From: Legionella sp. | Lineage (GTDB): Bacteria > Pseudomonadota > Gammaproteobacteria > Legionellales > Legionellaceae | Assembly: GCA_031291115.1 (NCBI GenBank) | Contig: JARLJQ010000008.1 | Span: forward strand, 1 to 64,000 | Length of the DNA stretch: 64,000 bases | Direction of reading: 5' to 3' | Shown: positions 276 through 13,043 of the stretch, piece by piece | Layout: every line of letters begins with the position of its first letter | Position numbering within the stretch: position 1 is the stretch's first letter | The notes under the pieces: generated by a model | Databases searched by the model: none | Seen by the model: only the letters and a program-made list of their open reading frames with translations | Told to the model about the DNA's origin: nothing | Program-made: the position numbers and the translations under genes

Positions 276-296
276 TTTAATTGGTGGAGGCGGCGG
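276..296. repeat. attL: 21-bp direct repeat of the tmRNA 3' end
   Basis: These 21 bases are identical to 12644-12664, where the same sequence includes the CCA-encoding 3' end of ssrA. The match starts with TTTAATTGG and ends with GGCGGCGG. Such a copy of a tmRNA end far from the gene is the expected footprint of tyrosine-recombinase integration, so this marks the distal end of the island. The next bases diverge from the tmRNA. Confidence 0.88.
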
Positions 297-356
297 CTAT
301 TGAATAGATGGCTATGATCTACGCGTGTCTTGGGTTATGTTATTTATTTAAATAAT

Positions 357-396
357 GTTACCCCGAAAGTTACCCCTGAATGATGGTTGTTACCCC
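357..396 (+). promoter_or_regulatory. Left cluster of GTTACCCC repeats (candidate integrase arm sites)
   Basis: The sequence GTTACCCC occurs at 357-364, 369-376 and 389-396. The 20-base block at 357-376 matches 18 of 20 bases of a block at 12516-12535 near the other island end. Short direct repeats placed just inside both ends of an element are typical arm-type binding sites for a tyrosine integrase or its directionality factor. The role is inferred. Confidence 0.55.
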
Positions 397-416
397 GATT
401 TTGTTTCCAATTTCTC

Positions 417-452
417 CCTACTATTCACAATTCGGGAATTACGAATAGTAGG
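417..452. other. 36-bp two-tier inverted repeat inside attL
   Basis: Outer arms CCTACTATTC (417-426) and GAATAGTAGG (443-452) are perfect complements. Inside them AATTC (429-433) and GAATT (436-440) form a second stem. No T-tract follows on either strand, so it is not a typical intrinsic terminator, although it lies downstream of the 490-1191 gene. It could be a protein-binding or recombination site, or a weak transcription end. Confidence 0.5.
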
Positions 453-489
453 AGTCATATCAAAACATTACGCCCCCGACGACAAAGAA

Positions 490-1191
490 TTAATTAACTT
501 GTTGAGAAATCAGTGAATATAATATTTTACCACCTTCATCTCTTCTGGCATTTAATATGCCGTTAAACTCTCCCCAGCCCAAAGCATCAACTTTTAATGG
601 TATAAATTTTACACTGGAGGTAATTAATTCATATTTTATTTCTGCTAGATATGTTGGGTTAGTTTGCTGAGGATCTCTTAACGGCATAGGCAATACAGCT
701 CTTAAACACAAATAACCAGACGGATTTACGGCTAATCTTAATTCAACACTCTCGACCCCATCAAGATCATTAATTTTTATACGTGATCCTTGTAGAAGAA
801 GTAGCATACAAGCTTGTAACTCACTCGCTCGCTTATCATTTCTTAAAATGCATAAATTTTTATCAATTATTAAAAGCGTATTTTCTAATTCAGTTAATGA
901 CTCATTGATATCGATTGGATTCTCAATGGTTATTCTGCCATTCAGTTGATTCGCTTCTTTATCGTATGACTTTAATAAGGATTCGTGCACCTTTTTAATA
1001 TTTTTATATACGTGCCCCCGATCCTTTAATCTAGGGTGAGCAATGAAATCCCCAATTTCTCTAGCCATTCCATTAACTGGTAATTGTTCACGAACACATA
1101 TTATTAATGACGAAATTAATTCCTGATCAAAACTGTCGGCATTAATTCGTTTGATTATGTTTTCAATTCTATAAATTAAATTTATGTTCAT
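490..1191 (-). CDS. Orphan protein of 233 aa, last gene of the HTH-NTase-phosphoesterase cassette
   Basis: I do not recognise a named domain. The N-terminal third is predicted helical and contains the string REIGDFIAHPRLKDRG; the C-terminal half looks beta-rich and ends in ILNARRDEGGKILYSLISQ. There is no signal peptide or membrane segment, so the protein is probably cytosolic. It follows the phosphoesterase gene by 42 bases on the same strand and is most likely co-transcribed with the three genes upstream of it. A 22-codon relic with 15 identical residues to its C-terminus lies at 3340-3411, so the gene once existed in two copies within this island. That recurrence suggests it is a standing component of the cassette rather than a passenger. 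Function unknown. Confidence 0.75.
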   Translation of the reverse strand: MNINLIYRIENIIKRINADSFDQELISSLIICVREQLPVNGMAREIGDFIAHPRLKDRGHVYKNIKKVHESLLKSYDKEANQLNGRITIENPIDINESLTELENTLLIIDKNLCILRNDKRASELQACMLLLLQGSRIKINDLDGVESVELRLAVNPSGYLCLRAVLPMPLRDPQQTNPTYLAEIKYELITSSVKFIPLKVDALGWGEFNGILNARRDEGGKILYSLISQQVN

Positions 1192-1233
1192 TATTTATGA
1201 CCTATATGCTCTGCTAGCTTTACGAGTTTATTC

Positions 1234-2049
1234 TTAAGCAAGAATGATTTCCTGAATCTCTGGTTTATAATACTGCGCTCCACCTGCTTTAATTTCCAAA
1301 TTGTCGAAAAAATTCATTGATACTGCTGTATGTGTATGCCCACATAAAACTAGAAAGTGAATATCTTTATGTTGTTGCGCAAAGTTTATGATCACATCCC
1401 CTGTTGCTTTTGAAGCAAAGTAAGGCAGCCAATTTTCATCACTGGGGCGATCTTTATGCCAACTACATTCAGGAATAGGTGGTATATGAGTAGCAATAAT
1501 TACTTTTTTGATATTGGTAGTAATTGTGCTCATTAATGTTTGTTCAAGAATCCTAGCATCCGCATCGGCTAATTTTTGCATTTCATTTTTCAATGCAGAT
1601 TTATTCAATAAAAATGCTTGGTACAATTCAGCAATTAAACGGCTGTCATTCAAGCTAACGGTGCTATGATCAAAATCGCCATAACGCGCATCAGCCCAGC
1701 CGTCATGTCCAAGTAATACTGTATCATTACTTAGTGCGATAATTTCAGGCTTCCCCAACCAAATTAATCTATTATTTTGCTGGCATAAGGACTGAATTTT
1801 CTTACGAACATTGATAACACTGCCAAAATAGTAATCATGATTACCCAATACAAAATAAATCGGTGTATTCACATGCTTGCTAAATTCGTCGAGTATTTCA
1901 CATACATCTTTCGCTTCAGCAATATCTCCAGTAATTAAGATCTTATCAGGATTACCTTCCGCAACACGTTCATAGAATTGCACTCTATCGGCTGGTTTCA
2001 AGAAATTAAGATGAATGTCAGTTAACCAAGCTATTTTGTTGCGATCCAT
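1234..2049 (-). CDS. Calcineurin-like metallophosphoesterase
   Basis: The 271-residue protein shows the whole metallophosphoesterase motif series in order: TDIH near residues 10-13, TGDIAE near 40, GNHDYY near 70, ATHIPP near 187 and GHTHT near 237. These supply the metal-binding Asp, His and Asn residues of the dinuclear active site. The substrate cannot be read from the sequence; relatives act on nucleotides, nucleic acids or phosphoproteins. No signal peptide is present, so it is cytosolic. Its start codon directly follows the stop of the nucleotidyltransferase gene (2049/2050), which implies translational coupling. An enzyme that adds a nucleotide next to one that can remove phosphoesters suggests opposing or sequential chemistry; this is inference. 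Confidence 0.85.
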   Translation of the reverse strand: MDRNKIAWLTDIHLNFLKPADRVQFYERVAEGNPDKILITGDIAEAKDVCEILDEFSKHVNTPIYFVLGNHDYYFGSVINVRKKIQSLCQQNNRLIWLGKPEIIALSNDTVLLGHDGWADARYGDFDHSTVSLNDSRLIAELYQAFLLNKSALKNEMQKLADADARILEQTLMSTITTNIKKVIIATHIPPIPECSWHKDRPSDENWLPYFASKATGDVIINFAQQHKDIHFLVLCGHTHTAVSMNFFDNLEIKAGGAQYYKPEIQEIILA

Positions 2050-2760
2050 TTATAGCTCCACTTGCACAATCGCTAATATCCGCTCTTTGACTATTTTTTC
2101 CCGACTCTCAGACTCTTGCGAATAATTTAAATGCCCAGGTAATGCCTGAAGAAATTGAGGATTATTCATTAATAATGCAAACTCGGACGCAAGATATTGT
2201 TTTAGATTTTCCGAGACAGTCGCAACATCGCTTACAATTTCAGGTCGACCATCGATCAAAGAAATGATGTCTTCCAAATCATGACTCAATAGAAAATCTT
2301 GGTTCCCGCGATCTTTAAAAGCTTCGAGCTTTGTTGCTAGAAAATACGGTGCAGAAATAACCTTTACATGGATTGTGTCTGTTATTTTCTGTTCTATCGC
2401 ATGAGCCTGAGCATCTTGATACCATCGGTTAGAAAACCCAAATACACCTTTATCTACTGGCATGACATCAATTAACACACCATCACAATCCCAGCGACAA
2501 ATAGGATGATCACCGGCAATCAACTCTTTGAACCCTTTTCGCCTGAGTTTTTTGGCAATAGCATAATAGTCGGATCTTGTAATGACATTCACAATACAAT
2601 CCACGTCCACTGTATAACGTACATCGGGGGCAGCCTTGTCTGTGATTAACAGCCCCGTGACGCATCCCCCAACAAATGTGACTTCATTGCATAGTTCCTC
2701 AAGTCGATGAGCAACCAGTGTCAGCAGCTCTATATTGTGTTGCGAAGAACTTTTATTCAT
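2050..2760 (-). CDS. AbiEii-like nucleotidyltransferase
   Basis: This 236-residue protein has a polymerase-beta-type nucleotidyltransferase core: the GG at residues 31-32 followed by VDVDC with Asp 52 and Asp 54, and a later VLIDVMPV that can supply the third acidic residue. It resembles nucleotidyltransferases of the AbiEii/AbiGii toxin class, which transfer NMP to a target such as tRNA or protein. It lies 7 bases downstream of a winged-HTH gene and abuts the phosphoesterase gene. In AbiE systems an HTH-bearing antitoxin precedes the nucleotidyltransferase toxin, and the same order is seen here. The target is unknown, and toxin activity is inferred from family and context. Confidence 0.75.
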   Translation of the reverse strand: MNKSSSQHNIELLTLVAHRLEELCNEVTFVGGCVTGLLITDKAAPDVRYTVDVDCIVNVITRSDYYAIAKKLRRKGFKELIAGDHPICRWDCDGVLIDVMPVDKGVFGFSNRWYQDAQAHAIEQKITDTIHVKVISAPYFLATKLEAFKDRGNQDFLLSHDLEDIISLIDGRPEIVSDVATVSENLKQYLASEFALLMNNPQFLQALPGHLNYSQESESREKIVKERILAIVQVEL

Positions 2761-2767
2761 TACTCAC

Positions 2768-3304
2768 CTACTTATAATTTTTTAATAACTCAGATATTTT
2801 CTGCGTAGCGATTTGTTTTTCTCGTGCTCGTCCAGATCGAATTGCATCTATGAGTGTTAAGAGATCATAAAATAAAGGATCGGGATGTTTCATCACCGAT
2901 TCGGGAACAGATGGATACAGAGGCTTGAGTGCTACGCCTCTTTCATTTCCTTCCCCATAAGGCCACACTGGTATGGGATCATTTCCAGAAATAATATGCT
3001 CATTTAAGCTTGGAGCTGCATAACTTGTTGGAATACCGCGAACAATTTCTCCTAATTTCGCAGGGAAAATATATTTAAGTCCGTGAGTAAAAAATTCTTC
3101 GCAGGCTTGAATGATTGGTTGTGGTTTATTTGGTGAATGGTAACGCGTCATTAAACCAGCTTCAACTAATCGTTTGAAGGCACTATTTATTTGAGAGGGG
3201 CTGAGACATAATTCCATCGCAATACTATTTTGAGACCAGCTCTTATTTTCATGGCAGGCCAAAAGTTTTGCTAAAACTACGATATCTTGGGGTTTAATTA
3301 TCAC
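2768..3304 (-). CDS. Winged-HTH regulator or antitoxin, first gene of the cassette
   Basis: This is a 178-residue protein. Residues 1-60 form a MarR-like winged helix-turn-helix: IAMELCLSPSQINSAFKRLV fits the recognition region. The C-terminal part (GIPTSYAAP, DPIPVWPYG, GVALKPLYPSVP) is a conserved tail I associate with HTH proteins paired with AbiEii-type nucleotidyltransferases. An AGAGG ribosome site precedes the ATG. A 17-bp palindrome at 3320-3336 lies 16 bases upstream and is probably its operator. A decayed second copy of the N-terminus is at 4190-4350 with the same palindrome upstream, which supports an autoregulatory pairing of protein and site. Confidence 0.8.
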   Translation of the reverse strand: MIIKPQDIVVLAKLLACHENKSWSQNSIAMELCLSPSQINSAFKRLVEAGLMTRYHSPNKPQPIIQACEEFFTHGLKYIFPAKLGEIVRGIPTSYAAPSLNEHIISGNDPIPVWPYGEGNERGVALKPLYPSVPESVMKHPDPLFYDLLTLIDAIRSGRAREKQIATQKISELLKNYK

Positions 3305-3319
3305 AATTGATTCCTCTAC

Positions 3320-3336
3320 ATTCTAGAACTTAGAAT
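3320..3336. promoter_or_regulatory. Operator palindrome O1 upstream of the HTH gene
   Basis: ATTCTA-GAACT-TAGAAT is a perfect 6-bp inverted repeat with a 5-base centre. It sits 16 bases upstream of the HTH start codon. The same element with one base change (GAATT centre) occurs at 4374-4390, at a similar distance upstream of the relic HTH start. Two copies in equivalent positions make a regulator-binding site likely. Confidence 0.7.
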
Positions 3337-3339
3337 AAG

Positions 3340-3411
3340 CTAGTTGAGTTTTTGAGAAATTACAGAATATATAATTTTCCCATATTCATCCTTCCTTGCG
3401 TTTAATACTAG
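3340..3411 (-). pseudogene. Relic of the 3' end of a second copy of the 233-aa gene
   Basis: Read on the minus strand from 3411 to the TAG at 3340-3342, this gives 22 codons: LVLNARKDEYGKIIYSVISQ then KLN, counting the first Leu. Compared with the last 22 residues of the 490-1191 product, 15 are identical and the others mostly conservative. An in-frame stop (3412-3414) precedes it and no start exists, so it is a remnant. It overlaps the final codon of the 260-aa ORF and lies just upstream of operator O1. It shows that a second unit ending in this gene once preceded the present operon. Confidence 0.75.
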
Positions 3412-4190
3412 TTAGCGGGGCTAAAATTACGACTGGTTAATCCACTGGAATAAATCGTGTCCGCTAGAGGTTGCACTAAAAATATATCCAGTAAACTTTT
3501 CCTATTTTCTATTTCCTCATCGGTTTCATAATCACAATAAATACGAAAAATTAACTTATTTTTTTGTAAAAACGAATGTATTGAATTTATGAGAGCTTCA
3601 ACTTCCGTCATCAGTTTAAAGCAATCGTTATCCGAAAAATCATGAAGTGTATCTTTCACTAGTTCCTCATATTCGTGGGGATACATCATGGTACTGGTGC
3701 TTGATACTGTCTGTGTTTTTACATCATGTTTTCCAGAATGGATATGTTTTATAGGGTTTCTCTTAATATTGTAATTGCCAGGAGTGACGGAGCAAATTAT
3801 TGCATTCCATTCCAGTTCGAGTGTTGCATAATCTAAAGAAGGCTGATGCTCTTTTTCAATTATTTCAGAAAAACATAACAGCTTTGTTTGTTTATCATTG
3901 TAATGTCGTTGTTTACGCTCACTATCCCAATCATAAAACAAAATAAAACCAATATGTTCTAAAAAATTTTCTAGTGCCGAAAATGCATAATCAAAGCAAA
4001 TCATTCTTAACTGTTGAATATCAAAAAATATATACTCAATATCCGGACGCATAAGCTGAGAGTTTCCATGCTGTTGACTTGATTGATCCATGCAAATTTT
4101 GATTTTATTTATAGTTTTTGTGGCATTTTGTGCTATTTTTAGAAACTGCGCATAGCCTCGAGAATTGAGCATATCCTTTCTTTGGTACAT
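3408..4190 (-). CDS. Orphan protein of 260 aa in the core slot of the eroded cassette unit
   Basis: I recognise no definite family. The protein is mostly helical; the stretch FDYAFSALENFLEHIGFILF near residues 70-90 recalls HEPN-type helical bundles, but no R-x4-6-H active motif is obvious, so this is only a possibility. No signal peptide or convincing membrane span is present. The ATG overlaps the end of the HTH relic (TAATG arrangement at 4188-4192), and the stop overlaps the 233-aa gene relic. It therefore occupies the position that the nucleotidyltransferase and phosphoesterase hold in the intact unit. A promoter with -35 TTGACT and an operator-overlapped -10 lies at 4374-4409. It is long and intact between two dead genes, which suggests it is still under selection. 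Confidence 0.65.
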   Translation of the reverse strand: MYQRKDMLNSRGYAQFLKIAQNATKTINKIKICMDQSSQQHGNSQLMRPDIEYIFFDIQQLRMICFDYAFSALENFLEHIGFILFYDWDSERKQRHYNDKQTKLLCFSEIIEKEHQPSLDYATLELEWNAIICSVTPGNYNIKRNPIKHIHSGKHDVKTQTVSSTSTMMYPHEYEELVKDTLHDFSDNDCFKLMTEVEALINSIHSFLQKNKLIFRIYCDYETDEEIENRKSLLDIFLVQPLADTIYSSGLTSRNFSPAN

Positions 4191-4350
4191 TATTTCCTCT
4201 CCATAATCATACTAAAACGAACCGTTTCCCCACAAACATGCAGTATTGTGCGACTTGTTTGCGAAGGACTGAGGCACAATTTAAAGGCGACACTATATTG
4301 CTCTAATCGATGAAAGGCTTGGCCAAAATTACATCTTGAGGCTTAAGCAT
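4190..4350 (-). pseudogene. Frameshifted relic of a second winged-HTH gene
   Basis: From the ATG at 4348-4350 the minus strand reads MLKPQDVILAKP, matching MIIKPQDIVVLAK of the intact regulator, then hits a stop. One frame over it continues as EQYSVAFKLCLSPSQTSRTI, matching QNSIAMELCLSPSQINSAF, and then degenerates to a TAA at 4190-4192. A single small indel near the AKP position explains the shift. The relic keeps only the first 45 or so codons. It joins directly to the start of the 260-aa gene, whose ATG overlaps its stop. Confidence 0.75.
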
Positions 4351-4373
4351 ATGCTTACCATCATCCATTCCAT

Positions 4374-4409
4374 ATTCTAGAATTTAGAATAAAGAATGAT
4401 TTTAGTCAA
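4374..4409 (-). promoter_or_regulatory. Promoter P2 with operator palindrome O2
   Basis: On the minus strand TTGACT (4404-4409) is followed after 17 bases by TAAATT (4381-4386), a good sigma-70 pair. The palindrome ATTCTA-GAATT-TAGAAT occupies 4374-4390 and covers the -10 box, so a bound HTH dimer would block initiation. This would drive the relic HTH gene and the intact 260-aa gene. The regulator from the neighbouring unit could still act here. Confidence 0.6.
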
Positions 4410-4574
4410 TAATATTACGCAACAATTATTAATAAATAAGTAATTAAAACTGATTTTATAACAAAAATCAGGTGGATACGGGTTCTATTCGACATACGAA
4501 ATCAGTGATTTATTTCCTAAAAGTACATTTTTTTACTATCATTAACCTAAATTTATATTATTTATGGTGTTCTG

Positions 4575-5285
4575 ATGAGTTATTTAAGCTTTATCGACGA
4601 TGAAAAACTTGAAAGTATTGTTTTAAAAATATTGGATCGAGGGGCGTCTTCTATAAAAAATGCACAAGATAAATTTGCTAGAAATGTAATTGATCCCTTT
4701 TCAATTCTTTTTGAAATGAGCAGCTTTAATATGGATTCAAACAAATGGATTGAAAATGAAACGATGCGACAAGCTCAAAAATCATTATCAAATCATATCG
4801 GGGATTTTCATCAGAAATTACTTGGCTCATTTAATGGATGGGAGTGTTTATCTACCGGGGAGATTATTGATGGCATTTGCCATGAAAAAAAAATCATCGC
4901 TGAGATTAAAAATAAGCACAACACGCTAAAAGGCTCTGATCGTTCAGCCATGTATTATAAACTGGATGATTTAATCATGAAGAAAGGACAGAAATATAAA
5001 GATTTTACCGCCTATTATGTTGAGGTAATCCCTAAAAAACCAGCGAGATACAATCTGCCATTCACCCCATCTGATTCTAGCAAAGGCACAAAATGTCCTG
5101 TTAATGAAAAAATTAGGGTTATTGATGGTTATAGTTTTTATGCCTTGGCATCAGGGGTAGATAATGCATTAGAACAAATTTTCAATGTGCTCCCCATCGT
5201 GATTCAAAAAGTAAAACCTAGTTACAAATTTATAAACCACGAAGAGGTATTAAAGTATTTTAACTCGGCTTTCTTGGGCAAATAA
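4575..5285 (+). CDS. Eco47II-like type II restriction endonuclease
   Basis: The 236-residue protein resembles Eco47II-family enzymes along most of its length: an N-terminal NVIDPFSILFEM block, WIENETMRQAQKSL, IGDFHQKLLGS and IAEIKNKHNTLKGSD, then RVIDGYSFYAL and FNVLPIV near the end. Eco47II cuts GGNCC; the same specificity here is a prediction. The E-x-K in IAEIKNKHN, with the Asp of the upstream IIDG, fits a PD-(D/E)xK-type active site. The gene converges on the methyltransferase gene and their ends overlap by 26 bases. No strong ribosome site precedes the ATG, so expression may be weak. It is transcribed divergently from the eroded cassette unit. Confidence 0.82.
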   Translation: MSYLSFIDDEKLESIVLKILDRGASSIKNAQDKFARNVIDPFSILFEMSSFNMDSNKWIENETMRQAQKSLSNHIGDFHQKLLGSFNGWECLSTGEIIDGICHEKKIIAEIKNKHNTLKGSDRSAMYYKLDDLIMKKGQKYKDFTAYYVEVIPKKPARYNLPFTPSDSSKGTKCPVNEKIRVIDGYSFYALASGVDNALEQIFNVLPIVIQKVKPSYKFINHEEVLKYFNSAFLGK

Positions 5286-6510
5286 TCATACTATCAGGAT
5301 CATATACATTAGAAAGCATAGCAATTATGCATCTACCAATATGATAACCAAGATTAACAGGTACAGCATTACCTATTTGTTTGTATTGGGAAGACACTGA
5401 GCCAGAAAAGATCCATTCATCAGGGAATGACTGAATTCGTGCATATTCTCTTACTGTAAGCGGGCGAGTTTCAGATGGATGACATCGCTCAGTTTGTTTT
5501 TGTGCTGGGTTACAAGTTAAAGTAAGTGATGGTTCATTCCAAGACAATCGTCTAGCCATTCCAGTTTTGCCACCACCTAAAAAATAACTAGCCCCCATAT
5601 ATGATCTTTGCAAATCATCTGGTAAATCTCGCCAATACCCACCTTCTGAAATTAGCTCCATTATCTGTTTTTTTGTGGTAGTGTATTTTTGTCCTTCAGA
5701 GAGAGGAGTGTCTTTTAATGCCTCACGAAGACTAATCGTATAATCTTGTTCTTTAGGAAATGCTATCGAGTTTTGAATATCCTTTCGAATACCAAATATT
5801 ACAAGCCGCTCTCTTTTTTGTGGAACATCAAGATATTGTGCTCGCAAAACTCTATAAGCAACATGATATCCAAGATCGTCTAGTACTTGTAGCATTGTAT
5901 CAAGAGTTCGGCCGCCGTCATGTTTCTCCAGACCTCTAACATTTTCGCCCAGTATAACTTTAGGCTGAATTTCTTTAACAGCACGTGCATATTCAAAAAA
6001 TAATGTCCCGCGAATATCTTCAAATCCTAGTCGTTTTCCCGCATAACTAAATGCTTGGCAAGGGAAGCCACCTGCAACTACATCTGCTTGTACTTCTTTA
6101 AAACTAACATTCGCAATATCATCGCCAATAACATTCCATAAAGGTTTGTTGTTTCTGAGTGTTGCCACTGGATTTTTATCAATTTCTACTAATAGCTCAC
6201 AGTTCAAACCCGCATTATGTAAACCAAGAGCCAAACCTCCAGCTCCTGCAAATAGCTCAACAACTTTGAAACCTGAATTAATGTTTGACTTTAAAATTTT
6301 AAACTCTGCGTTACATCCTTGACCTGTAAGTTTAGATTTGAACCGCTCTAATTCAGATATTTGAAATAATCTATGCCCAGATTCATTTCGATGTGCTTTA
6401 ATCAATCCTTTTTTTTCCCAGCGCCTGATAGTATCAATTGATACATCTAGTATTTCAGTTGCTTGTGCAATACTTAAATATGAAGTATGCCTTAATTCCT
6501 CGACATTCAT
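5260..6510 (-). CDS. DNA (cytosine-5) methyltransferase with N-terminal MerR-like HTH
   Basis: Residues 10-58 form a MerR-type HTH (LSIAQATEILDVSIDTIRRW, then GHRLFQISELERF). Residues 80-410 form a C5-methyltransferase: motif I FAGAGG near 87-92, motif IV GGFPCQ with catalytic Cys 151, motif VI GENVRGL, motif VIII QKRERLVIFG and motif X IGNAVPVNLG. It should methylate the site cut by the convergent Eco47II-like enzyme and protect host DNA. The HTH may let it control its own promoter or that of the nuclease, as in other HTH-fused methyltransferases; this is inference. A GGA ribosome site precedes the ATG. Its 416 residues are explained by the added HTH. Confidence 0.9.
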   Translation of the reverse strand: MNVEELRHTSYLSIAQATEILDVSIDTIRRWEKKGLIKAHRNESGHRLFQISELERFKSKLTGQGCNAEFKILKSNINSGFKVVELFAGAGGLALGLHNAGLNCELLVEIDKNPVATLRNNKPLWNVIGDDIANVSFKEVQADVVAGGFPCQAFSYAGKRLGFEDIRGTLFFEYARAVKEIQPKVILGENVRGLEKHDGGRTLDTMLQVLDDLGYHVAYRVLRAQYLDVPQKRERLVIFGIRKDIQNSIAFPKEQDYTISLREALKDTPLSEGQKYTTTKKQIMELISEGGYWRDLPDDLQRSYMGASYFLGGGKTGMARRLSWNEPSLTLTCNPAQKQTERCHPSETRPLTVREYARIQSFPDEWIFSGSVSSQYKQIGNAVPVNLGYHIGRCIIAMLSNVYDPDSMIICPRKPS

Positions 6511-6868
6511 TCTAGATTCCTTTTTTTATTATTTACATCAATATTATATATAACCATTGCATATGTAAAGGTTACCATAATAAATGGGTATGATTGATCA
6601 TTAATACATAAAAATGGATTTTACGTTCATGTTTTTCTGAGGCGAGCAATATCTTTCCAAGCAGAATACTAATCTCAGGAGTCTTGGAAAATAAATTACT
6701 TGGTTATTCCCTCATTGCATTACATGCAACGAATGATTAGGTAGTACAAGGCGCTTGTATTGCCATTCCATTTAGAGCAATTAGTTGGACCAGCGAGTAT
6801 TCTAAATAAATTGGTGATTCATATCAAACCAAAATATAAATATTTCATTAATACCAGCCATTTTGTAG
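6511..6868. other. 358-bp intergenic region upstream of the methyltransferase
   Basis: No gene is supported here. On the minus strand, upstream of the methyltransferase, GGTAACC and TGGTTA flank TTTACATATGCAA around 6555-6580, a loose inverted repeat that could bind the HTH domain of the methyltransferase. Smaller inverted repeats (TTGCA/TGCAA near 6714-6729; CAAG/CTTG near 6748-6758) lie between the restriction-modification and replication modules. I see no terminator with a clear T-tract. Confidence 0.35.
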
Positions 6869-7450
6869 CTACAACACGAACCTTAATATTTTTTTCATGG
6901 CTTTCATTACGAATAAATCATGCTCATCTACTAATCGCTCAAATGTGTCCCAATGCATGCCTTTGGGTTTTTCTTCATGCTCATCTAATATCCCAGGCTC
7001 CCACCCAAGTCGAGCGCGAATCTTATCTGCTCGACGTATCGCTCGATCTTCAGGTGTTTGCAGCTGGCAGAAATAAATTAACTTGTAACAATGCCGACAG
7101 GCGAAAATTGTGTCTACAAGATAAAGCTTGGCCACTCTATGAGAGCATCCTTCGACCGGACAAATAAACCATGGTCTTGATCCACCATAATTGCACGCAG
7201 TCCAAACTAAAGGTACTCCGTAACAATGTTCTTTATTACGCTTATCTTGGTGGAGAAGAATTAATTTATCTATTTCCGTAAGTATATGCACAGATGTCCC
7301 TTCATCTTCATCATTGGACCAACGCCGTGTATAAGCTTGTCCTGCGGTTAACAGTCCTTTTCGATGTAAGCGTCCTACATCTAATTGGCAATGCCCTGAA
7401 GTAATTTTTATAATTCTCCTCCAGGGTTTTCCACTTCCGAAGCCACCCAT
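6869..7450 (-). CDS. Mobile-element protein of 193 aa with zinc-ribbon-like Cys motif
   Basis: The protein starts MGGFGSGKPWRR, a start I associate with small proteins of integrative elements and prophages. Residues about 100-125 contain FICPVEGC and FACRHC, spaced like a four-Cys zinc ribbon. The C-terminal part is charged and helical. It is the last gene of the replication module, 76 bases after the 115-aa gene. Nucleic-acid binding is likely from the Cys motif, but the role is unknown. Confidence 0.65.
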   Translation of the reverse strand: MGGFGSGKPWRRIIKITSGHCQLDVGRLHRKGLLTAGQAYTRRWSNDEDEGTSVHILTEIDKLILLHQDKRNKEHCYGVPLVWTACNYGGSRPWFICPVEGCSHRVAKLYLVDTIFACRHCYKLIYFCQLQTPEDRAIRRADKIRARLGWEPGILDEHEEKPKGMHWDTFERLVDEHDLFVMKAMKKILRFVL

Positions 7451-7526
7451 ATTTTCTCCCGGATTTAATCGAAATCATTAGTCAAATTTAGTTGGGCTGT
7501 TGTTTTGTAAACATCAACCAACCCCT

Positions 7527-7874
7527 CTAATCTACGCTACGAGCCACAAAACATGCGCAATTTATTAAAATATCGATTATTGGTCTATAGGTTCTTGAAC
7601 AGTGGTGAAGGTCACCACGCTTTGCAGCAAGGCATTGGCCGCTTCTCGATAAATTATTGCATTGCGAGCAATATCTTCGAGGATCATCTTCTGCTAAACC
7701 AGTATTAACAGAATAATGAAACCCATTGAATGATTCTATTTGCGTATCTGCTACTGCTAATGTTGCTATTTTTGCTACTGTTTCGGTTTTTGATTCTGGA
7801 TCAGTAGCAACATTAGCAGAAATAGCATTAGCACGGCTCAACCTAATTTCTGCTATAAGTTGCAAAATAGTCAT
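7527..7874 (-). CDS. Small protein of 115 aa with C-terminal Cys cluster
   Basis: The first 60 residues are Ala/Thr-rich and helical; the last 40 hold RYCSQCNNLSRSGQCLAAKR and HHCSRTYRP, giving C-x2-C, C and C positions suited to one zinc or Fe-S site. Its ATG overlaps the stop of the DUF3987 gene by 4 bases, so it is translationally coupled to it. I recognise this Cys-rich tail only as a recurrent companion of primase genes in integrative elements. Function unknown. Confidence 0.6.
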   Translation of the reverse strand: MTILQLIAEIRLSRANAISANVATDPESKTETVAKIATLAVADTQIESFNGFHYSVNTGLAEDDPRRYCSQCNNLSRSGQCLAAKRGDLHHCSRTYRPIIDILINCACFVARSVD

Positions 7875-9985
7875 ATTTTAACCTCATACTTAAGCAATAT
7901 GGGGTTTATCTCAATACACTTCGGTCGAACAGTCATGTTTAACCTCACACGACCAGCCTCTTCCAAAATTTGTAAAGTAGCTTTTAGTGCAGCACTTTTC
8001 CTCATACCCGGAGGACCGCATTGCAAAATTGCTTGAGAGGGAACTCGATCAACATTTTGTTTCTGACAATAGGCAAGTAACCACGTTTCTAAACGAACTG
8101 CATCGGCAAGATCCGGAGGCAAGGCCAGTCCACCAAAAAATCGCCTGGATTCATTTAAATGCCACAAAATAATGAGACTGGCATTTTCAAAAGAATCTAA
8201 GGCTATATCTCCATCCATTCCATATTCTATGATCTGAAATAAGGCAGCTAATCTTACTGCGTTATCAGCAGCTTTACTTGCAACATCACGTACATCATAT
8301 AATTCACCACTATTATGCAATTCACTTTCAATTCTATTGTGAAATTTTATCCATGCAATTTTTGCCGATGCTGACAATGACATTAAAGATGGTCTTAACT
8401 TGCCATTACTATCGATAGGAGGAGGATTATTTAATATCGCAGTAATGCGTTGATGGAATTTGGCTAAATGAGGCCAATTCTCTGGTGGTTCCGAAAAAAG
8501 ACGGTAACCCTGTGTGGATTCAGGCCAAGAAAATAAAACCCGTGCAAAATAGCCGATTCCACGCACCATACTACCTAATCGAGCAATAAACTCCAGTAAG
8601 GTAACCTCTTGAACTTGGACAAACATTGTCAACCGAACTTCTTCAGCTACTAGCGATTCGGAACCGATTCGATCAGTAGGAACACTCTTACCATCCCATC
8701 CTTGATTATAGGTAGCAAGATTTCGCATTGCTGAATCTTTCTGCATAGCATGTGCACCAAGTACGATACCACCTTCACTGGAAATAATGCCTGCGGAAGG
8801 CCAAACCATTGCCAAATTTCGCTTCAAAGCCTCTGGTGTTGCATCACTATAAATAAGTCTCGGAACTCTTGGTGATTCAGGCTTTCTATGTGCAAGATCC
8901 AACAATTCTGATTCTTGAGACGTTGTATCCTTACCTTTTGCAGCCAACCGACGTATTTCAGTTTGAACTCCATCACATTTAGATTTCCAAACCGCTAATT
9001 GGGCGTTATAGTCTTTTATTAATGGTCTTGCGGCCTTTGCTTGCTCCTCTTCATATCTGTAGATAGCCTGCATAAAAAAACTATCACATGTTGATTTTCT
9101 CTCGCCTGAATCGGCAATAGTCATTAAAAACAATCCGGTGGGACCACATAGTTTTTCTGCTCGTTTAACATCAACATATGTTTGCCCCGTTAACGAAATA
9201 GCAGCAAGAGCAGAGGAAACAACTAATGGTATTGGTGCTTTTGTAAATTCTTGTACTTCTATTACCGCTGCACGTATTGTTTCTGGCAATGCGTCCAGAG
9301 GATATGGCTCTGGTGTAATAATGCTGGTCAATGATGTAATCTCTGGCCAATCATTTATATTTTGATCGAGTAATTCATCAAACATAGGTAATTGCAAGAG
9401 ATCATCGCGTGCAGCATTTGGATTTTCTTTTATCCAATCAACAACGTCATCTCCTTCATTTAGATTTAATTTATCAACGTCAACATAACGAATGGTACAA
9501 TTTAACTCTTTCAGGATTTTTGTTACTTCTTGTGAATAACTTAGCCCTTCCTCATCAGAATCTCTCCAAATAATCACGAATCTTCCGCGAAGTACTTCCC
9601 AATTTGCTTGCAACGCACTTGTGGAACTACCGGAAGTTGTTGCTAAAAAACCAAATTTTTCTAGCAAATCTACCTTTTGCTCACCTTCGACAATCCAAAC
9701 AATATCGTCTGTGTTTTTTATAAGTGTAGATAAGTGATATAGGGGTTTACCTGTTGTAAATTTAGGCTCACCAATATCCCAATTTTTCTTATTGTTATTG
9801 AAATAAAATGGACGAATCCATTTTCTGCTATCGGGATGCTTTAAACGAATACGAAAATAAAGTAATTCTCCTGACTCATCGTCATAGACATGTAAGGCTT
9901 CCAGTAGAAAGCCTTCTGCTAATTCTTTTTTTGCATGTTGCCCAACAAGTTTTTCTGCTATAGTTTTCAATTCATCTTTATTCAT
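7871..9985 (-). CDS. DUF3987 primase/helicase-like protein with Toprim-like N-terminus
   Basis: This 704-residue protein has two parts. Residues about 90-170 look like a Toprim fold: VWIVEGEQKVDLL followed by VIIWRDSDEEGLSYSQEV, with the conserved Glu and the D-x-D. Residues about 235-600 match DUF3987: LMTIADSGERKSTCDSFF gives a Walker-A-like loop. Such proteins are replication or mobilisation factors of phage satellites and integrative elements and are thought to unwind DNA after a CHC2-type primase. The upstream CHC2 gene overlaps it by 8 bases, as expected for a primase split between two chains. Expression should follow the AlpA-headed operon. Confidence 0.8.
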   Translation of the reverse strand: MNKDELKTIAEKLVGQHAKKELAEGFLLEALHVYDDESGELLYFRIRLKHPDSRKWIRPFYFNNNKKNWDIGEPKFTTGKPLYHLSTLIKNTDDIVWIVEGEQKVDLLEKFGFLATTSGSSTSALQANWEVLRGRFVIIWRDSDEEGLSYSQEVTKILKELNCTIRYVDVDKLNLNEGDDVVDWIKENPNAARDDLLQLPMFDELLDQNINDWPEITSLTSIITPEPYPLDALPETIRAAVIEVQEFTKAPIPLVVSSALAAISLTGQTYVDVKRAEKLCGPTGLFLMTIADSGERKSTCDSFFMQAIYRYEEEQAKAARPLIKDYNAQLAVWKSKCDGVQTEIRRLAAKGKDTTSQESELLDLAHRKPESPRVPRLIYSDATPEALKRNLAMVWPSAGIISSEGGIVLGAHAMQKDSAMRNLATYNQGWDGKSVPTDRIGSESLVAEEVRLTMFVQVQEVTLLEFIARLGSMVRGIGYFARVLFSWPESTQGYRLFSEPPENWPHLAKFHQRITAILNNPPPIDSNGKLRPSLMSLSASAKIAWIKFHNRIESELHNSGELYDVRDVASKAADNAVRLAALFQIIEYGMDGDIALDSFENASLIILWHLNESRRFFGGLALPPDLADAVRLETWLLAYCQKQNVDRVPSQAILQCGPPGMRKSAALKATLQILEEAGRVRLNMTVRPKCIEINPILLKYEVKI

Positions 9986-10337
9986 GATGCCATGCTCCCA
10001 ACTGAGTCACTGCATCAAAAAAGCTGAGGCCATAACGTAATCGATGGAAGGCCAATACATCGTGGCCTTTTGCACCACATCCAAAGCAACGGAAACAGCC
10101 ATTGACCAAATTAATACTTAAACTAGGGTTATTATCGTCATGGAAGCAGCATGTTACACTTACCCATTTTGACTTAATTTTTAATTTCTTGAACTGCTCA
10201 CTGTAATAAGAAGATGGCGTTGGTAATCGGGATCGATCGAATTCACGCTTATGTTTTTTTCTAGTATAATCAGCTTGACCATTCTTTTGATAAGCCCCAT
10301 TCGTTGGCGCGAATGGGTGATTTTTGATATTACTCAT
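9978..10337 (-). CDS. CHC2 zinc-finger primase subunit
   Basis: The 119-residue protein has CCFHDDNNPS followed by CFRCFGCGAKGHD, the CHC2 zinc-binding domain found at the N-terminus of DnaG-type primases. The basic first 40 residues may bind DNA. The catalytic Toprim part is encoded by the next gene, with which it overlaps by 8 bases. Its own start overlaps the AlpA-like gene by 4 bases. Together they would form a split primase for element replication. Confidence 0.85.
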   Translation of the reverse strand: MSNIKNHPFAPTNGAYQKNGQADYTRKKHKREFDRSRLPTPSSYYSEQFKKLKIKSKWVSVTCCFHDDNNPSLSINLVNGCFRCFGCGAKGHDVLAFHRLRYGLSFFDAVTQLGAWHHE

Positions 10338-10549
10338 CGGTCACTCTCCTGCTTATAACTAGCAAGCAGGGCATGGATATCTTCAGCTTTCCATACTGTA
10401 CAACGTGCACTCAATTTATATGGCTGAGGGTATTTACCTGATTTGACACCCGCCCAAAATGCTGAGCGACTGACGGGAAAAACTGCAAGGATTTTGTCAA
10501 TTTTGACATATCCAACTTCTGGGATGGTTAGCATTTGATAGTCCTCCAA
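10334..10549 (-). CDS. AlpA-family regulator / excisionase-like protein
   Basis: The 71-residue protein carries an AlpA-type HTH: VKIDKILAVFPVSRSAFWAG, then SGKYPQPYKLSARCTVWKAE. Such proteins activate the integrase gene or act as excision directionality factors in P4-like elements. It heads the operon with the primase genes. Candidate binding sites lie near the island ends (12489-12580 and 357-396), but which protein binds them cannot be told from the sequence. Confidence 0.85.
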   Translation of the reverse strand: MEDYQMLTIPEVGYVKIDKILAVFPVSRSAFWAGVKSGKYPQPYKLSARCTVWKAEDIHALLASYKQESDR

Positions 10550-10624
10550 GATGCCTGTAGATATTAGGAGGTCTAAGAGTAACGAGTTTTATTAAGGGTA
10601 CATGAACATTCTACCCTGATTTAT

Positions 10625-11299
10625 TTAAGGTAAATCTTTACGTGACTTAAACCAAGATCTGATAGCCTCAAACCCTGGTGTGCACTCATTTGGATATTTT
10701 TCTTTAAGTCTACGTTCAATTTTTTTATAGCAATCTGTTTTGAATTTTGTTTCAGACCTTACTTCGCGATACAGTTCTTCGGCTTCAGATTCAAACCGAA
10801 TTTTCATGTTTCTGCTTGCATTGGCTTCATTTGTTCGGGATGCTCCAGCAGAGTATTTTGGATGCACTTTATCAAGAATAAAAAGCCGAAAATACAGCTC
10901 TTGAACTTCCATTGCTATATCCAAGATACCGATGCATTCAAGATTTATGGGTGGCCAAGGCAACATTCTACATTTATGGTCAATTAGTGCAGCTAAATAC
11001 TCTCCAGCCTGCCCCCCATGGCCCTTATCTCTTTTCTCAATCGCTGCAAATAAAGATAAACACACATATTCTACGCGCTCTATTTTTCCATTAATTACAT
11101 CAAAATAACCGGTTGTATCGTCAAATCCTTTTAATTTTAAATACTCTTGTACATTCATAGCATAATAAGTTAAGCGTTGTTCAGCAAAACTCTGAGGCGC
11201 AGCTTGGTCACTAAATTCAAATGGAGACTCATAAAGCTCAAATAAAGTAACTTCATGTTGTTTTGTCCTACCAATATTATCAAATTTAATTTTTCCCAA
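10625..11299 (-). CDS. Island orphan of 224 aa downstream of the integrase
   Basis: No family recognised. The protein is cytosolic, with a helical middle; the basic C-terminal 60 residues (YKKIERRLKEKYP, IRSWFKSRK) resemble a DNA-binding tail. Its start overlaps the integrase stop by 14 bases, so both are probably read from one transcript. The position next to the integrase is typical of cargo or regulatory genes in P4-like islands. Role unknown. Confidence 0.6.
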   Translation of the reverse strand: MGKIKFDNIGRTKQHEVTLFELYESPFEFSDQAAPQSFAEQRLTYYAMNVQEYLKLKGFDDTTGYFDVINGKIERVEYVCLSLFAAIEKRDKGHGGQAGEYLAALIDHKCRMLPWPPINLECIGILDIAMEVQELYFRLFILDKVHPKYSAGASRTNEANASRNMKIRFESEAEELYREVRSETKFKTDCYKKIERRLKEKYPNECTPGFEAIRSWFKSRKDLP

Positions 11300-12500
11300 A
11301 ATATTCCCCAGCTTTTAATTCATCCAAGTAATCAGCCCATCTTTGCATCATTCTATGGCGCTCAGGTAAATGCTTTGTGCGGTTATATGCACGACCATTG
11401 GGGTCTCTTACTGCGTGTGCTAATTGATGCTCGATCAGATCAGGGGATTCACCTAACACTTCATCAAGAATCGTTCTTGCCATTGCTCTAAAGCCATGAC
11501 CACTCATCTCATCTTTACTAATGCCTAGACGTCGCATTGCAGCAAGAATTGCGTTATCACTCATGGGGCGATCACTACTACGCGCCCCCGGAAAAACATA
11601 ACGCCCCGTGCCTGTCAAAGCATAAAGCTCACGAAGAATCGCGACAGATTGCTTGGCAAGAGGAACTATGTGAGGGGTATCAGTTTTAGTAACAATGTAT
11701 CGCCATTCTGCTGCCTCAAGATCAAAATCCTTCCACTCAGCTGTCCGAAGCTCTCCAGGCCTAACAAAGAGAAGAGGAGCAAGACGCAGTGCACATGAAA
11801 CAGCGAAAGTTCCTTGATAGCCTTCAAGTGTACGTAGTAATTCAGCTACTTGTTTTGGCTCAGTAACCGCAGCAAAATGTTCTCCTTTCACAGGAGGCAA
11901 GGCACCTCTAAGATCTCCTGAGGGATCTCTTGTTGCTCGTGATGTTGCAACGGCATAACGAAAAACCTGTCCACAATTGGCTAAAGCACGATGTGCTGTT
12001 TCTAATGCCCCGCGATTTTCAATACGGCGAATAACCTCAAGTAATTGAGGAGGGGTAATCTCTTCTATCGGTCGTTCGCCAAGCCAAGGGAAAATATCAC
12101 GTTCAAATCTTCGTATAATGCGATCCCCGTGAGATTTCACCCAATTAACAGAGTATTTGGCATACCACTCTCTTGTTACGACTTCAAAACTATTGGCTAA
12201 TCGTTCTTGTTTAGCGGCTTTTTGCGCTTTACGATTTTCACCTGGGTCAATTTCATTTGCTAATAACTTACGAGCAGCATCACGGCGATCTTGAGCATCT
12301 TTCAGACTTACATCAGGATAAGTTCCAAGGGAGAGTAACTTTTCTTTTCCGTTGAAAGAATAACGAAATCGCCACCATTTTTTACCCTTTGGAGTGATGA
12401 TAAGAAACAAACCACGCTCATCAAAAAGCTTATATTGCTTCTCACGAACTTCGGCATTTCGGACATGTATATCTTTTAAAGTCATTTTGGGGTAACTCAT
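11286..12500 (-). CDS. P4-type tyrosine integrase of the island
   Basis: The 404-residue protein has the DUF4102 N-terminal DNA-binding domain (residues 1-90, ending SLGTYPDVSLKDAQDRR). A core-binding domain follows (about 105-200), then the catalytic domain with Arg 247 (VRPGELR), Lys 272 (VTKTDT), His 335 and Arg 338 (HGFR), His 362 and nucleophile Tyr 372 (AYNRTKH). All catalytic residues are present, so it should be active. It recombines the tmRNA 3' end with the element's att site. It lies directly beside attR and is transcribed away from ssrA, the usual layout. A GTTACCCC-type site overlaps its first codons, which suggests self-regulation. Confidence 0.95.
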   Translation of the reverse strand: MSYPKMTLKDIHVRNAEVREKQYKLFDERGLFLIITPKGKKWWRFRYSFNGKEKLLSLGTYPDVSLKDAQDRRDAARKLLANEIDPGENRKAQKAAKQERLANSFEVVTREWYAKYSVNWVKSHGDRIIRRFERDIFPWLGERPIEEITPPQLLEVIRRIENRGALETAHRALANCGQVFRYAVATSRATRDPSGDLRGALPPVKGEHFAAVTEPKQVAELLRTLEGYQGTFAVSCALRLAPLLFVRPGELRTAEWKDFDLEAAEWRYIVTKTDTPHIVPLAKQSVAILRELYALTGTGRYVFPGARSSDRPMSDNAILAAMRRLGISKDEMSGHGFRAMARTILDEVLGESPDLIEHQLAHAVRDPNGRAYNRTKHLPERHRMMQRWADYLDELKAGEYFGKN

Positions 12501-12535
12501 TTCATGCTCTATGAGGTTACCCTAAAAGTTACCCC
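12489..12535. promoter_or_regulatory. Right cluster of GTTACCC repeats (candidate integrase arm sites)
   Basis: GTTACCC at 12516-12522 and GTTACCCC at 12528-12535 are direct repeats, and GGGGTAAC at 12489-12496 is the inverted form. The block 12516-12535 matches 357-376 at 18 of 20 positions. The inverted copy covers the start of the integrase gene, so binding there could repress translation or transcription of int. Function inferred. Confidence 0.55.
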
Positions 12536-12554
12536 ACCTAAGCGTTGGATGTCA

Positions 12555-12580
12555 TTGGACGACATTATGTCCAAATGGAC
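12555..12580. promoter_or_regulatory. Three alternating TGGAC sites between int and attR
   Basis: TTGGAC (12555-12560), GTCCAA (12569-12574) and ATGGAC (12575-12580) give two overlapping inverted repeats. They lie in the likely promoter region of the integrase gene and could bind the AlpA-like protein or act as further recombination accessory sites. Confidence 0.4.
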
Positions 12581-12643
12581 GTAAAGATCAATAGGAATAT
12601 AGATTTTATGAGGAATGAAAATGTTATTGGATGGTATAAAACA

Positions 12644-12664
12644 TTTAATTGGTGGAGGCGGCGG
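12644..12664. repeat. attR: 21-bp direct repeat at the tmRNA 3' end
   Basis: Identical to 276-296. Bases 12650-12664 belong to the tmRNA acceptor and T-stem 3' strand; 12644-12649 lie just beyond the CCA. The gene is restored after integration because the element supplies the same end. Confidence 0.88.
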
Positions 12665-13043
12665 GAATCGAACCCGCGTCCGCAGATCCTCTGCCTTCAG
12701 CTCTACATGCGTAGCCTTGTCATTTGATTTAACTGTGGACACTCCGACAGGCAGGATGGTACACAGCGATTCCCTGAATTTCGCATCATAACCCGGGATA
12801 GATTAGGACACTAGCTTATCTTCTATGACCGTTGATTCGATACCAATAAGCGAGCTCGGTCAACGGGGCACCGGGGTTAAGGCCGATACACGTTGCAGTA
12901 AAACCAAAGCTTATGCAGCTATAGCTTGTCCTGCGAAGTTTTCATCGTTTGCATTTATATTTTTTGAGTCTGATTAACGAGAGTTCCCATGCTCGGCATG
13001 CACTTCTGGTTTTGCAACCCCCGTCGAAGCCAGGTCGCCCCCA
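12650..13043 (-). ncRNA. ssrA: tmRNA (transfer-messenger RNA)
   Basis: On the minus strand the RNA starts GGGGGCGACCTGGCTTCGAC and ends with a T-arm GGTTCGATTCCCGCC and the encoded CCA, about 394 nt. The tag reading frame runs from the resume codon GCA at 12952 down to the TAA at 12911-12913 and reads ANDENFAGQAIAA. With SmpB the RNA frees stalled ribosomes and tags the nascent chain for proteolysis. A plausible extended -10 (TATACT) lies upstream near 13060, though the spacing suggests a processed 5' end. The 3' end is the island's insertion site. Confidence 0.95.

What the first reader, a model, noticed from the sequence alone, without database searches (positions are those of the whole stretch)
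3320..4409. Eroded sister unit of the same cassette with an exchanged core
Seen: operator O2, a frameshifted HTH relic, the 260-aa ORF and a relic of the 233-aa gene's 3' end, in the same order and orientation as the intact unit. Inference: two tandem units with a common frame (HTH in front, 233-aa gene behind) and different cores, i.e. a modular system in which the effector slot is swapped.
Basis: partly seen in the sequence, partly recalled or inferred. Interest (0 to 1): 0.85.

Follow-up and report, generated by a model that had tools for sequence, protein, structure and literature searches.

The report
Swappable front end for defence genes
Next to an intact bacterial defence-type operon lies the broken front part of a second copy that now sits before a different gene, and related bacteria show the same control region placed before several different defence genes, so it looks like a reusable switch with interchangeable weapons.

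Summary
Observation confirmed. Between an intact unit (operator O1, winged-HTH, NTase, phosphoesterase, p233) and an Eco47II R-M lie, in the same order and strand, promoter-operator O2 (4367-4391), a broken HTH head (about 52 codons), a 260-aa gene, and the last 22 codons of a p233-like gene. HTH and NTase are PADLOC candidate PDC-M21. p233 is not a frame: phmmer finds it in none of 164 related loci. p260 has no detected relative. The constant part is the roughly 600-bp promoter-operator-HTH. Its 25-nt operator occurs in 35 of 143 Legionellaceae genomes, own included (reversed-pattern control 0 of 143). Behind an intact HTH stand NTase-phosphoesterase, DarTG, AbiE, RhuM-Fic or HipA-like genes; homology of 7 non-NTase loci to 10 NTase loci ends 3-67 nt before the HTH stop in 70 of 70 pairs. 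HTH residue 38 (Q or E) matches the operator core (TTCTAGAA or TTCGCGAA) in 83 of 84 HTHs. Effector swapping behind a mobile repressor is well supported; p260 under HTH control in trans is inferred. Against a general regulon: most genomes with only HTH-less operators lack this HTH.

The parts
4404..4409 (-). -35-like TTGACT of the unit 2 promoter
   Evidence: TTGACT, at about this distance, also precedes the operator in the 10 intact HTH loci listed; the 45-nt promoter-operator stretch is 43 of 45 identical to that before the intact HTH of L231 (= L104, Legionella MAG). Promoter activity not tested.
4367..4391 (-). operator O2 (palindromic, TTCTAGAA core)
   Evidence: 25 of 25 identical to several intact Legionella loci; only site in the window
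4200..4350 (-). relic of the HTH gene, about the first 52 codons, broken by indels and a stop
   Evidence: z 7.9-10.7, 0 of 300 shuffles; tblastn pieces
3408..4190 (-). p260: 260-aa gene in the effector position; family unknown
   Evidence: ORF, coding score and SD; no family at E<=0.001 in Pfam, PADLOC, NCBIfam, PHROGs (best Pfam 0.0066, under its cut-off)
3343..3408 (-). relic: last 22 codons of a p233-like gene
   Evidence: tblastn 1e-7, DNA 50/67; also found by the genome search, E 0.013
3313..3337 (-). operator O1 of unit 1 (weaker copy)
   Evidence: 20 of 25 identical to O2; palindrome core kept
2768..3304 (-). HTH: MarR-like winged-helix protein, 178 aa (PDC-M21A)
   Evidence: PADLOC PDC-M21A 1.6e-49, Pfam MarR 3e-7; AF2 pLDDT 91.9, recognition helix 36-48 with Q38
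2050..2760 (-). NTase, 236 aa (PDC-M21B, AbiEii-like)
   Evidence: PADLOC PDC-M21B 1.8e-71, Pfam AbiEii 8e-5; GG-x19-DVD and IDVMP strings present
1234..2049 (-). MPE: calcineurin-like metallophosphoesterase, 271 aa
   Evidence: Pfam Metallophos 1.5e-14; DxH, GD, GNHD, TH, GHxH strings present (motif names recalled)
490..1191 (-). p233: 233-aa gene behind the module, function unknown
   Evidence: one distant relative (L099, 6e-10; single-pair BLASTP 2e-15); phrog_29586 6e-5
276..296 (+). att-like copy of the tmRNA 3' end (far end of the element)
   Evidence: 21-nt exact repeat of 12644-12664
11286..12664 (-). integrase-like gene (11286-12500) beside tmRNA, and att-like repeat 12644-12664: near end of the element that carries both units
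   Evidence: tmRNA 12650-13042, repeat, ORF; 'integrase' by likeness to the Pfam-tested L214 integrase, not scanned itself

Best explanation
The stretch is the broken front of a second copy of a mobile promoter-operator-repressor module, now standing before a different effector gene (p260). In Legionellaceae this front (promoter, palindromic operator, MarR-like winged-HTH of the PDC-M21A family, about 600 bp) is coupled to interchangeable toxin-antitoxin or anti-phage genes. Shown from sequence: relics, operator identity, swapped neighbours with homology ending near the HTH stop, and covariation of HTH residue 38 with the operator core. Inferred: the HTH dimer sits on the operator, which by eye overlaps the promoter, and represses its own operon. 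In the window p260 has lost its own HTH but kept promoter and operator, so the intact HTH of unit 1 (Q38, matching the TTCTAGAA core) would repress p260 in trans. Loss of repression on infection or damage would switch on p260 and NTase-MPE together. NTase as growth-arresting nucleotidyltransferase, MPE as the enzyme that reverses or helps it, and p260 as a toxin-like effector are guesses. Both units ride on an element of about 12.4 kb integrated at tmRNA.
For: Relics significant. O2 promoter region 43/45 identical to an intact unit of another Legionella, while the relic beside it is only 131/192 identical (Fisher p 6e-5), so the promoter outlived the HTH. p260 has coding usage and an SD just behind the relic. 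Operator in 35 of 143 family genomes, own included, reversed control 0. Of 40 operator sites read, 18 precede an intact HTH; 11 of these go on to NTase (9 whole, 2 broken or short), 7 do not: DarTG, AbiE directly, AbiE after a 522-nt gap and a 137-aa ORF, RhuM-Fic, HipA-like, two with none. Best local homology of these 7 to each of 10 NTase loci ends 3-67 nt before the HTH stop in 70 of 70 pairs (L252 RhuM-Fic against L251 NTase: 96% over 612 nt), and tblastn at 1e-3 finds no NTase or MPE relic behind. Q38 with TTCTAGAA 33 of 33, E with TTCGCGAA 50 of 51 (p 1e-22 if rows were independent); on the tree the residue changes 3 (supported) to 6 times and the operator changes with it in 2-3 of 3 supported pairs, never the other way. 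Four other sites have operator plus HTH relic, one (L216) before a 298-aa gene of unknown family.
Against: p260 has no known relative, so its effector role rests on position alone. I searched 24 of the 35 operator genomes with the HTH: 11 have none at E<=1e-6. Of 16 whose operators all lack an intact HTH of this class, 11 have none, 4 a distant one (G008 38%, G006 52%, G058 51%, G030 57% over a part) and G066 fragments, so those operators are not repressed by this HTH now. Of 17 HTH-less sites, 8 face a defence gene on the same strand (one after a 148-aa ORF) and 9 do not. At AbiD and AbiE sites a likely promoter lies downstream of the operator (by eye). The tree gives only 3 supported independent pairs, too few for significance. 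O1 and the unit 1 promoter are degenerate (26/45). Defence genes would be neighbours in any island. A 15-nt string behind the HTH of L252 resembles NTase codons by eye, so that locus may be a deletion rather than a clean swap.
Confidence: 0.6

Rival explanations
1. Decay plus chance insertion: unit 2 is an old neighbouring copy of the cassette that lost its middle; p260 is an unrelated island gene that landed in the gap and uses the leftover promoter or its own. No modularity in the window itself.
For: p260 has no relative and no shown role. HTH relics with no same-strand gene close behind exist (L229, L215). Defence islands are crowded.
Against: The promoter-operator is preserved while the adjoining HTH decayed (p 6e-5); p260 starts right behind the relic with an SD; other effectors behind intact HTHs occur in at least 4 other genomes (DarTG, AbiE, RhuM-Fic, HipA-like).
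Confidence: 0.27
2. The operator palindrome acts mainly as a recombination seam: cassettes are exchanged at this 25-nt site, which explains operators with foreign flanks on both sides and no HTH.
For: At AbiD, S13 and AbiE sites the 25 nt are kept 23-25 of 25 while the 20 nt upstream are not (3-10 of 20). Some homologous blocks end close to the operator (L223 against L254 and L255 at -24; L226 against L217 and L220 at -51). Three operators in direct repeat within 20 kb in G039. HTH-less operators persist in genomes without the HTH.
Against: Operator type covaries with HTH residue 38, as expected of a binding site. In the seven swapped HTH loci the right-hand edge lies near the HTH stop, not at the operator. 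Other pairs run on through the operator (L254 with L255, L217 with L220). No recombinase was tied to the site.
Confidence: 0.2
3. p260 and p233 are old partners (HTH-p260-p233 was the original unit) and unit 1 gained p233 by recombination with it.
For: A p233-like tail stands directly behind p260, and p233 follows the NTase-MPE module in no other locus read.
Against: No p260 found anywhere else; the p233 relative L099 stands beside a 212-aa gene unrelated to p260 by BLASTP (E 0.61).
Confidence: 0.13

Closest known systems
PDC-M21 (PADLOC-DB candidate, M21A HTH + M21B NTase)
   Same: Unit 1 HTH and NTase hit both models strongly; HTH-NTase pairs are common: 29 of 42 HTH loci from a class-wide draw of 369 genomes.
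   Different: Unit 1 adds MPE and p233; unit 2 has no NTase and a broken HTH. The HTH also pairs with DarTG, AbiE, RhuM-Fic and HipA-like genes, so it is not just half of a two-gene system. No held paper contains 'PDC-M21'.
BrxR/CapW-type repressors before diverse defence systems (BrxR: PMC9122601, passages read; CapW: PMC9122588, listing only)
   Same: A DNA-binding repressor gene heads diverse defence systems and has inverted repeats upstream of it.
   Different: BrxR proteins carry a WYL domain; none was listed here at E<=1. Here the operator type follows one recognition-helix residue.
RptR of a Type I R-M/DarTG2 island (PMC12255303, abstract and passages read)
   Same: Small repressor heading a defence island, palindromes overlapping the promoter, different modules behind it; the authors suggest a recombination hotspot.
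   Different: RptR is 79 aa, alpha-helical, site TAGCTA; here 178 aa, MarR-like winged helix, site TTCTAGAA or TTCGCGAA.
AbiE type IV toxin-antitoxin (PMC3985639, passages read)
   Same: wHTH-type regulator plus AbiEii-like NTase in one operon; autoregulation through inverted repeats is the model.
   Different: The HTH hits no AbiEi model at E<=1; the NTase only borders the AbiEii cut-off, with 19 instead of 15 residues between GG and DhD.
HepT-MntA (HEPN-MNT) pairs
   Same: In L055 and L062 the same HTH family is fused to an NTP_transf_2 domain with a small downstream gene, HepT-like by Pfam in L055 and homologous in L058 and L062.
   Different: Not in the window; p260 has one RNPIKH string only and no HEPN family hit.

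Membership tests
PDC-M21 (unit 1) | M21A HTH protein | tested here: met
   1.6e-49
PDC-M21 (unit 1) | M21B NTase next to it | tested here: met
   1.8e-71, genes adjacent
PDC-M21 (unit 2) | intact M21A HTH and M21B NTase | tested here: not met
   HTH broken, no NTase piece found
AbiE type IV TA (unit 1) | AbiEi-type antitoxin | tested here: not met
   no AbiEi model at E<=1 in PADLOC for the HTH
AbiE type IV TA (unit 1) | AbiEii NTase with GG and DhD motifs | tested here: inconclusive
   Pfam 23.1 bits against cut-off 22.5; PADLOC AbiEii 1e-4; motif spacing 19 instead of 15
AbiE type IV TA (unit 1) | toxicity neutralised by the antitoxin | not testable with these tools
   needs an experiment
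BrxR/CapW WYL regulators | WYL domain | tested here: not met
   Pfam scan of the HTH to E 1 lists no WYL
BrxR/CapW WYL regulators | heads diverse defence systems with palindromic sites (works like) | tested here: met
RptR | 79-aa protein, TAGCTA site | tested here: not met
   178 aa, TTCTAGAA core
HEPN RNase (p260) | HEPN family profile and RX4-6H motif | tested here: inconclusive
   one RNPIKH at residue 144 (motif recalled); no HEPN hit to E 10; AF2 without relatives pLDDT 33
Transcriptional control by the HTH | HTH binds O1 and O2 and represses | not testable with these tools
   covariation only

The most novel reading that the evidence does not exclude
A roughly 600-bp promoter-operator-winged-HTH block is a mobile regulatory front end that Legionellaceae (and, by the code, other phyla) plug before unrelated toxin-antitoxin and anti-phage effectors, with operator specificity set largely by one recognition-helix residue (Q reads TTCTAGAA, E reads TTCGCGAA). 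In the window the block has been reduced to promoter and operator, so one repressor guards two different effector units, and p260 is a new effector family found through its operator.
Probability: 0.45. Interest if true: 0.75.

Novelty: new variant of a known kind. Interest (0 to 1): 0.62.

Why it matters
How defence genes are kept silent until needed, and how new weapons are fitted to existing switches, is poorly known. A short, conserved, readable operator with a simple residue code makes the question testable: it predicts which genes a repressor controls and can serve as a probe for unknown effectors, as it did here (p260, the 298-aa gene of L216). It also moves a PADLOC 'two-gene candidate system' towards a regulator with many partners.

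Tried and rejected
p233 hit in G021 (L006): lies in a gene that looks like yggS (ORF; label recalled), rejected as chance. p233 hits L100 and L101 (E 0.002-0.01): L100 falls in a gene that looks like an ArsR-type regulator fused to a methyltransferase (label from reading), rejected; L101 not examined. Weak p260 hits L081-L096 (E 0.02-0.4): scattered short pieces, taken as chance without further reading. p233 was also not found in plasmids, phages or viral contigs, nor its relative L099 in plasmids.

p260 as HEPN: tempting (RNPIKH), not supported by any profile; AF2 of p260 alone gave pLDDT 33 and was not used.

Full report
What is there. The window is the first 64 kb of contig C31 of a 2.6-Mb genome, 82% complete. 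The genus of its genome search group is Legionella: contigs of that group match named Legionella records by length and place, for example G032:C19 (2,403,021 bases) = L. steelei. On the minus strand lies an intact unit: operator O1, HTH (178 aa), NTase (236 aa), metallophosphoesterase (MPE, 271 aa) and p233 (233 aa). HTH and NTase are the two members of the PADLOC candidate PDC-M21 (1.6e-49 and 1.8e-71). Upstream, in the same direction, lie a second operator O2, a broken HTH head, a 260-aa ORF and the last 22 codons of a p233-like gene. Each relic beats every one of 300 shuffles, and p260 looks coding.

Where it sits. Both units are cargo of an element of about 12.4 kb: tmRNA at 12650-13042, a 21-nt exact repeat of its 3' end at 276-296 and 12644-12664, an integrase-like ORF beside tmRNA, a DUF3987 protein with a weak Toprim match and an Eco47II R-M.

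Who carries the module. The HTH model hits 45 of 369 genomes of the class (own included). I fetched the surroundings of the other 44; 42 show the HTH by phmmer, 29 have the NTase, 3 also the MPE, none p233 or p260. A scan of genome contigs with HTH alignment A1 kept the best 80 of 97 relatives: 70 have NTase pieces, 14 MPE pieces, none p233 or p260. The two sets overlap in several genomes. A Legionella adelaidensis plasmid also has HTH-NTase-MPE, followed by other genes. Homology of unit 1 to seven Legionella cassettes runs from the operator (for L247, from inside the HTH) to within 16 nt of the MPE stop (3338 or 3238 to 1228-1250), so p233 is outside the shared module.

The operator. The sequence before the HTH relic is nearly identical to the promoter-operator before intact HTHs of other Legionella: 43 of 45 against L231, operator 25 of 25, while the relic itself is 131 of 192 identical, with gaps (Fisher p 6e-5). 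I searched the 25-mer with up to 3 mismatches: 18 of 45 genus genomes and 35 of 143 family genomes have it (own included; the 143 include the 45); the reversed pattern, 0 of 143. I read 40 sites, the window's O2 included: 18 before an intact HTH, 5 before an HTH relic (window, L215, L216, L229, L230; L230 weak, z 2.2), 17 without HTH. Three viral contigs have an exact match.

Swapped effectors. Behind the 18 intact HTHs: NTase in 11 (9 whole, 2 broken or short; MPE in 7 of them, a DUF2971-like gene behind MPE in 3), DarT-DarG (L219), AbiE (L258; in L232 only after a 522-nt gap and a 137-aa ORF), RhuM-Fic/PDC-S23 (L252), HipA_C with a HipA-N/HTH partner (L259), no same-strand gene close by (L222, L253). 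I compared these 7 non-NTase loci with 10 NTase loci: the best alignment over the HTH ends 3-67 nt before the HTH stop in 70 of 70 pairs and never runs past it. The best pair, L252 and L251, is 96% identical over 612 nt. That is what effector exchange behind a common front should look like; loss of NTase and a chance neighbour is not excluded for single loci.

A recognition code. In 84 HTHs with one strict core upstream, residue 38, at the start of the recognition helix (36-48 in a model of pLDDT 91.9), is Q with TTCTAGAA in 33 of 33 and E with TTCGCGAA in 50 of 51. On a tree built without the recognition-helix columns the residue changes at least 3 (supported) and at most 6 times; in 3 supported independent pairs the operator changes the same way in 2-3 (mean 2.9), never the other way; three pairs cannot reach significance. 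The window HTH is Q38 and both O1 and O2 have the TTCTAGAA core, so the unit 1 HTH should read O2.

Against. HTH-less operators stand before AbiD (3 sites; two scanned, L255 by likeness), PDC-S13 (3 sites; L214 and L257 scanned, L223 by likeness) and AbiE (2 sites, one behind a 148-aa ORF); the other 9 of 17 face no recognised defence gene. I searched 24 of the 35 operator genomes with the HTH: 13 have one at E<=1e-6, 11 have none; of 16 without an intact HTH of this class at the operator, none has a whole close one elsewhere. Those operators are therefore remnants, seams, or sites of another regulator. For the window itself the HTH is present in cis.

History. Differences between relics and intact genes fall at codon positions 10/2/18, so the second unit probably diverged while functional and is not a fresh tandem copy. 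p260 fills the gap between HTH codon about 52 and p233 codon 212.

Mechanism proposed. Shown: anatomy, exchange, covariation. Inferred: autorepression by the HTH; repression of p260 in trans from O2; release under attack. NTase and MPE keep their catalytic strings. Whether p260 is a toxin, nuclease or sensor is open.

Known kin. BrxR (PMC9122601, passages) and RptR (PMC12255303, abstract and passages) are repressors that head diverse defence systems; the HTH family here is neither (no WYL; 178 aa with another site). CapK/CapS (PMC13373217) and CapW (PMC9122588) were seen only in the search listing with the start of the abstract. AbiE autoregulation: PMC3985639, passages. No held paper has the term PDC-M21, and two narrow term combinations found nothing; other wording was not searched.

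Noticed in passing
window 276-12664: The units, an Eco47II R-M and a DUF3987 gene form an element of about 12.4 kb integrated at tmRNA, with an integrase-like gene beside it.
   Followed up: partly
L223:8589, L254:4429, L255:6098: AbiD genes in three genomes have two palindromes upstream, one TTCGCGAA and one TTCTAGAA, i.e. sites of both HTH classes, although the HTH was not found in these genomes.
   Followed up: partly
L214:4451, L223:6701, L246:4431 and 5498, L248:1534: A second conserved motif TATGYCCCAAATTGRCG lies near the operator or before AbiE and S13 genes; function unknown.
   Followed up: no
L055, L058, L062: The HTH is 289-309 aa long here; in L055 and L062 the extra part is an NTP_transf_2 (MNT) domain. 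A small gene follows, HepT-like by Pfam in L055: the same HTH family on a HEPN-MNT pair.
   Followed up: partly
L042 (= L113): A close HTH from outside the family (63% identity) stands alone before a folD-like gene (label from reading) and keeps a 71-column relic of the NTase C-terminus.
   Followed up: partly
L099 / L102:8354-9082: The only p233 relative sits in a gene array with repeated flanking stretches and an integrase-like gene at L102:13294, suggestive of an integron (by eye; not tested).
   Followed up: no
L214-L215 (G039:C1:266392, 275393, 285464): Three operators in direct repeat within 20 kb; the first two flank a stretch with an integrase and a DUF3987-like gene.
   Followed up: no
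L217, L220, L226: Operator just behind the 3' end of a SIR2-like gene, facing no gene of 60 aa or more close by; block edge at -51 in L226.
   Followed up: no
L242:307-331: A viral contig carries an exact operator followed by a TTCGCGAAC palindrome; possible phage-borne decoy or regulated gene.
   Followed up: no
L216:5599-6768: Parallel case to the window: operator, HTH relic, then a 298-aa gene without family.
   Followed up: partly
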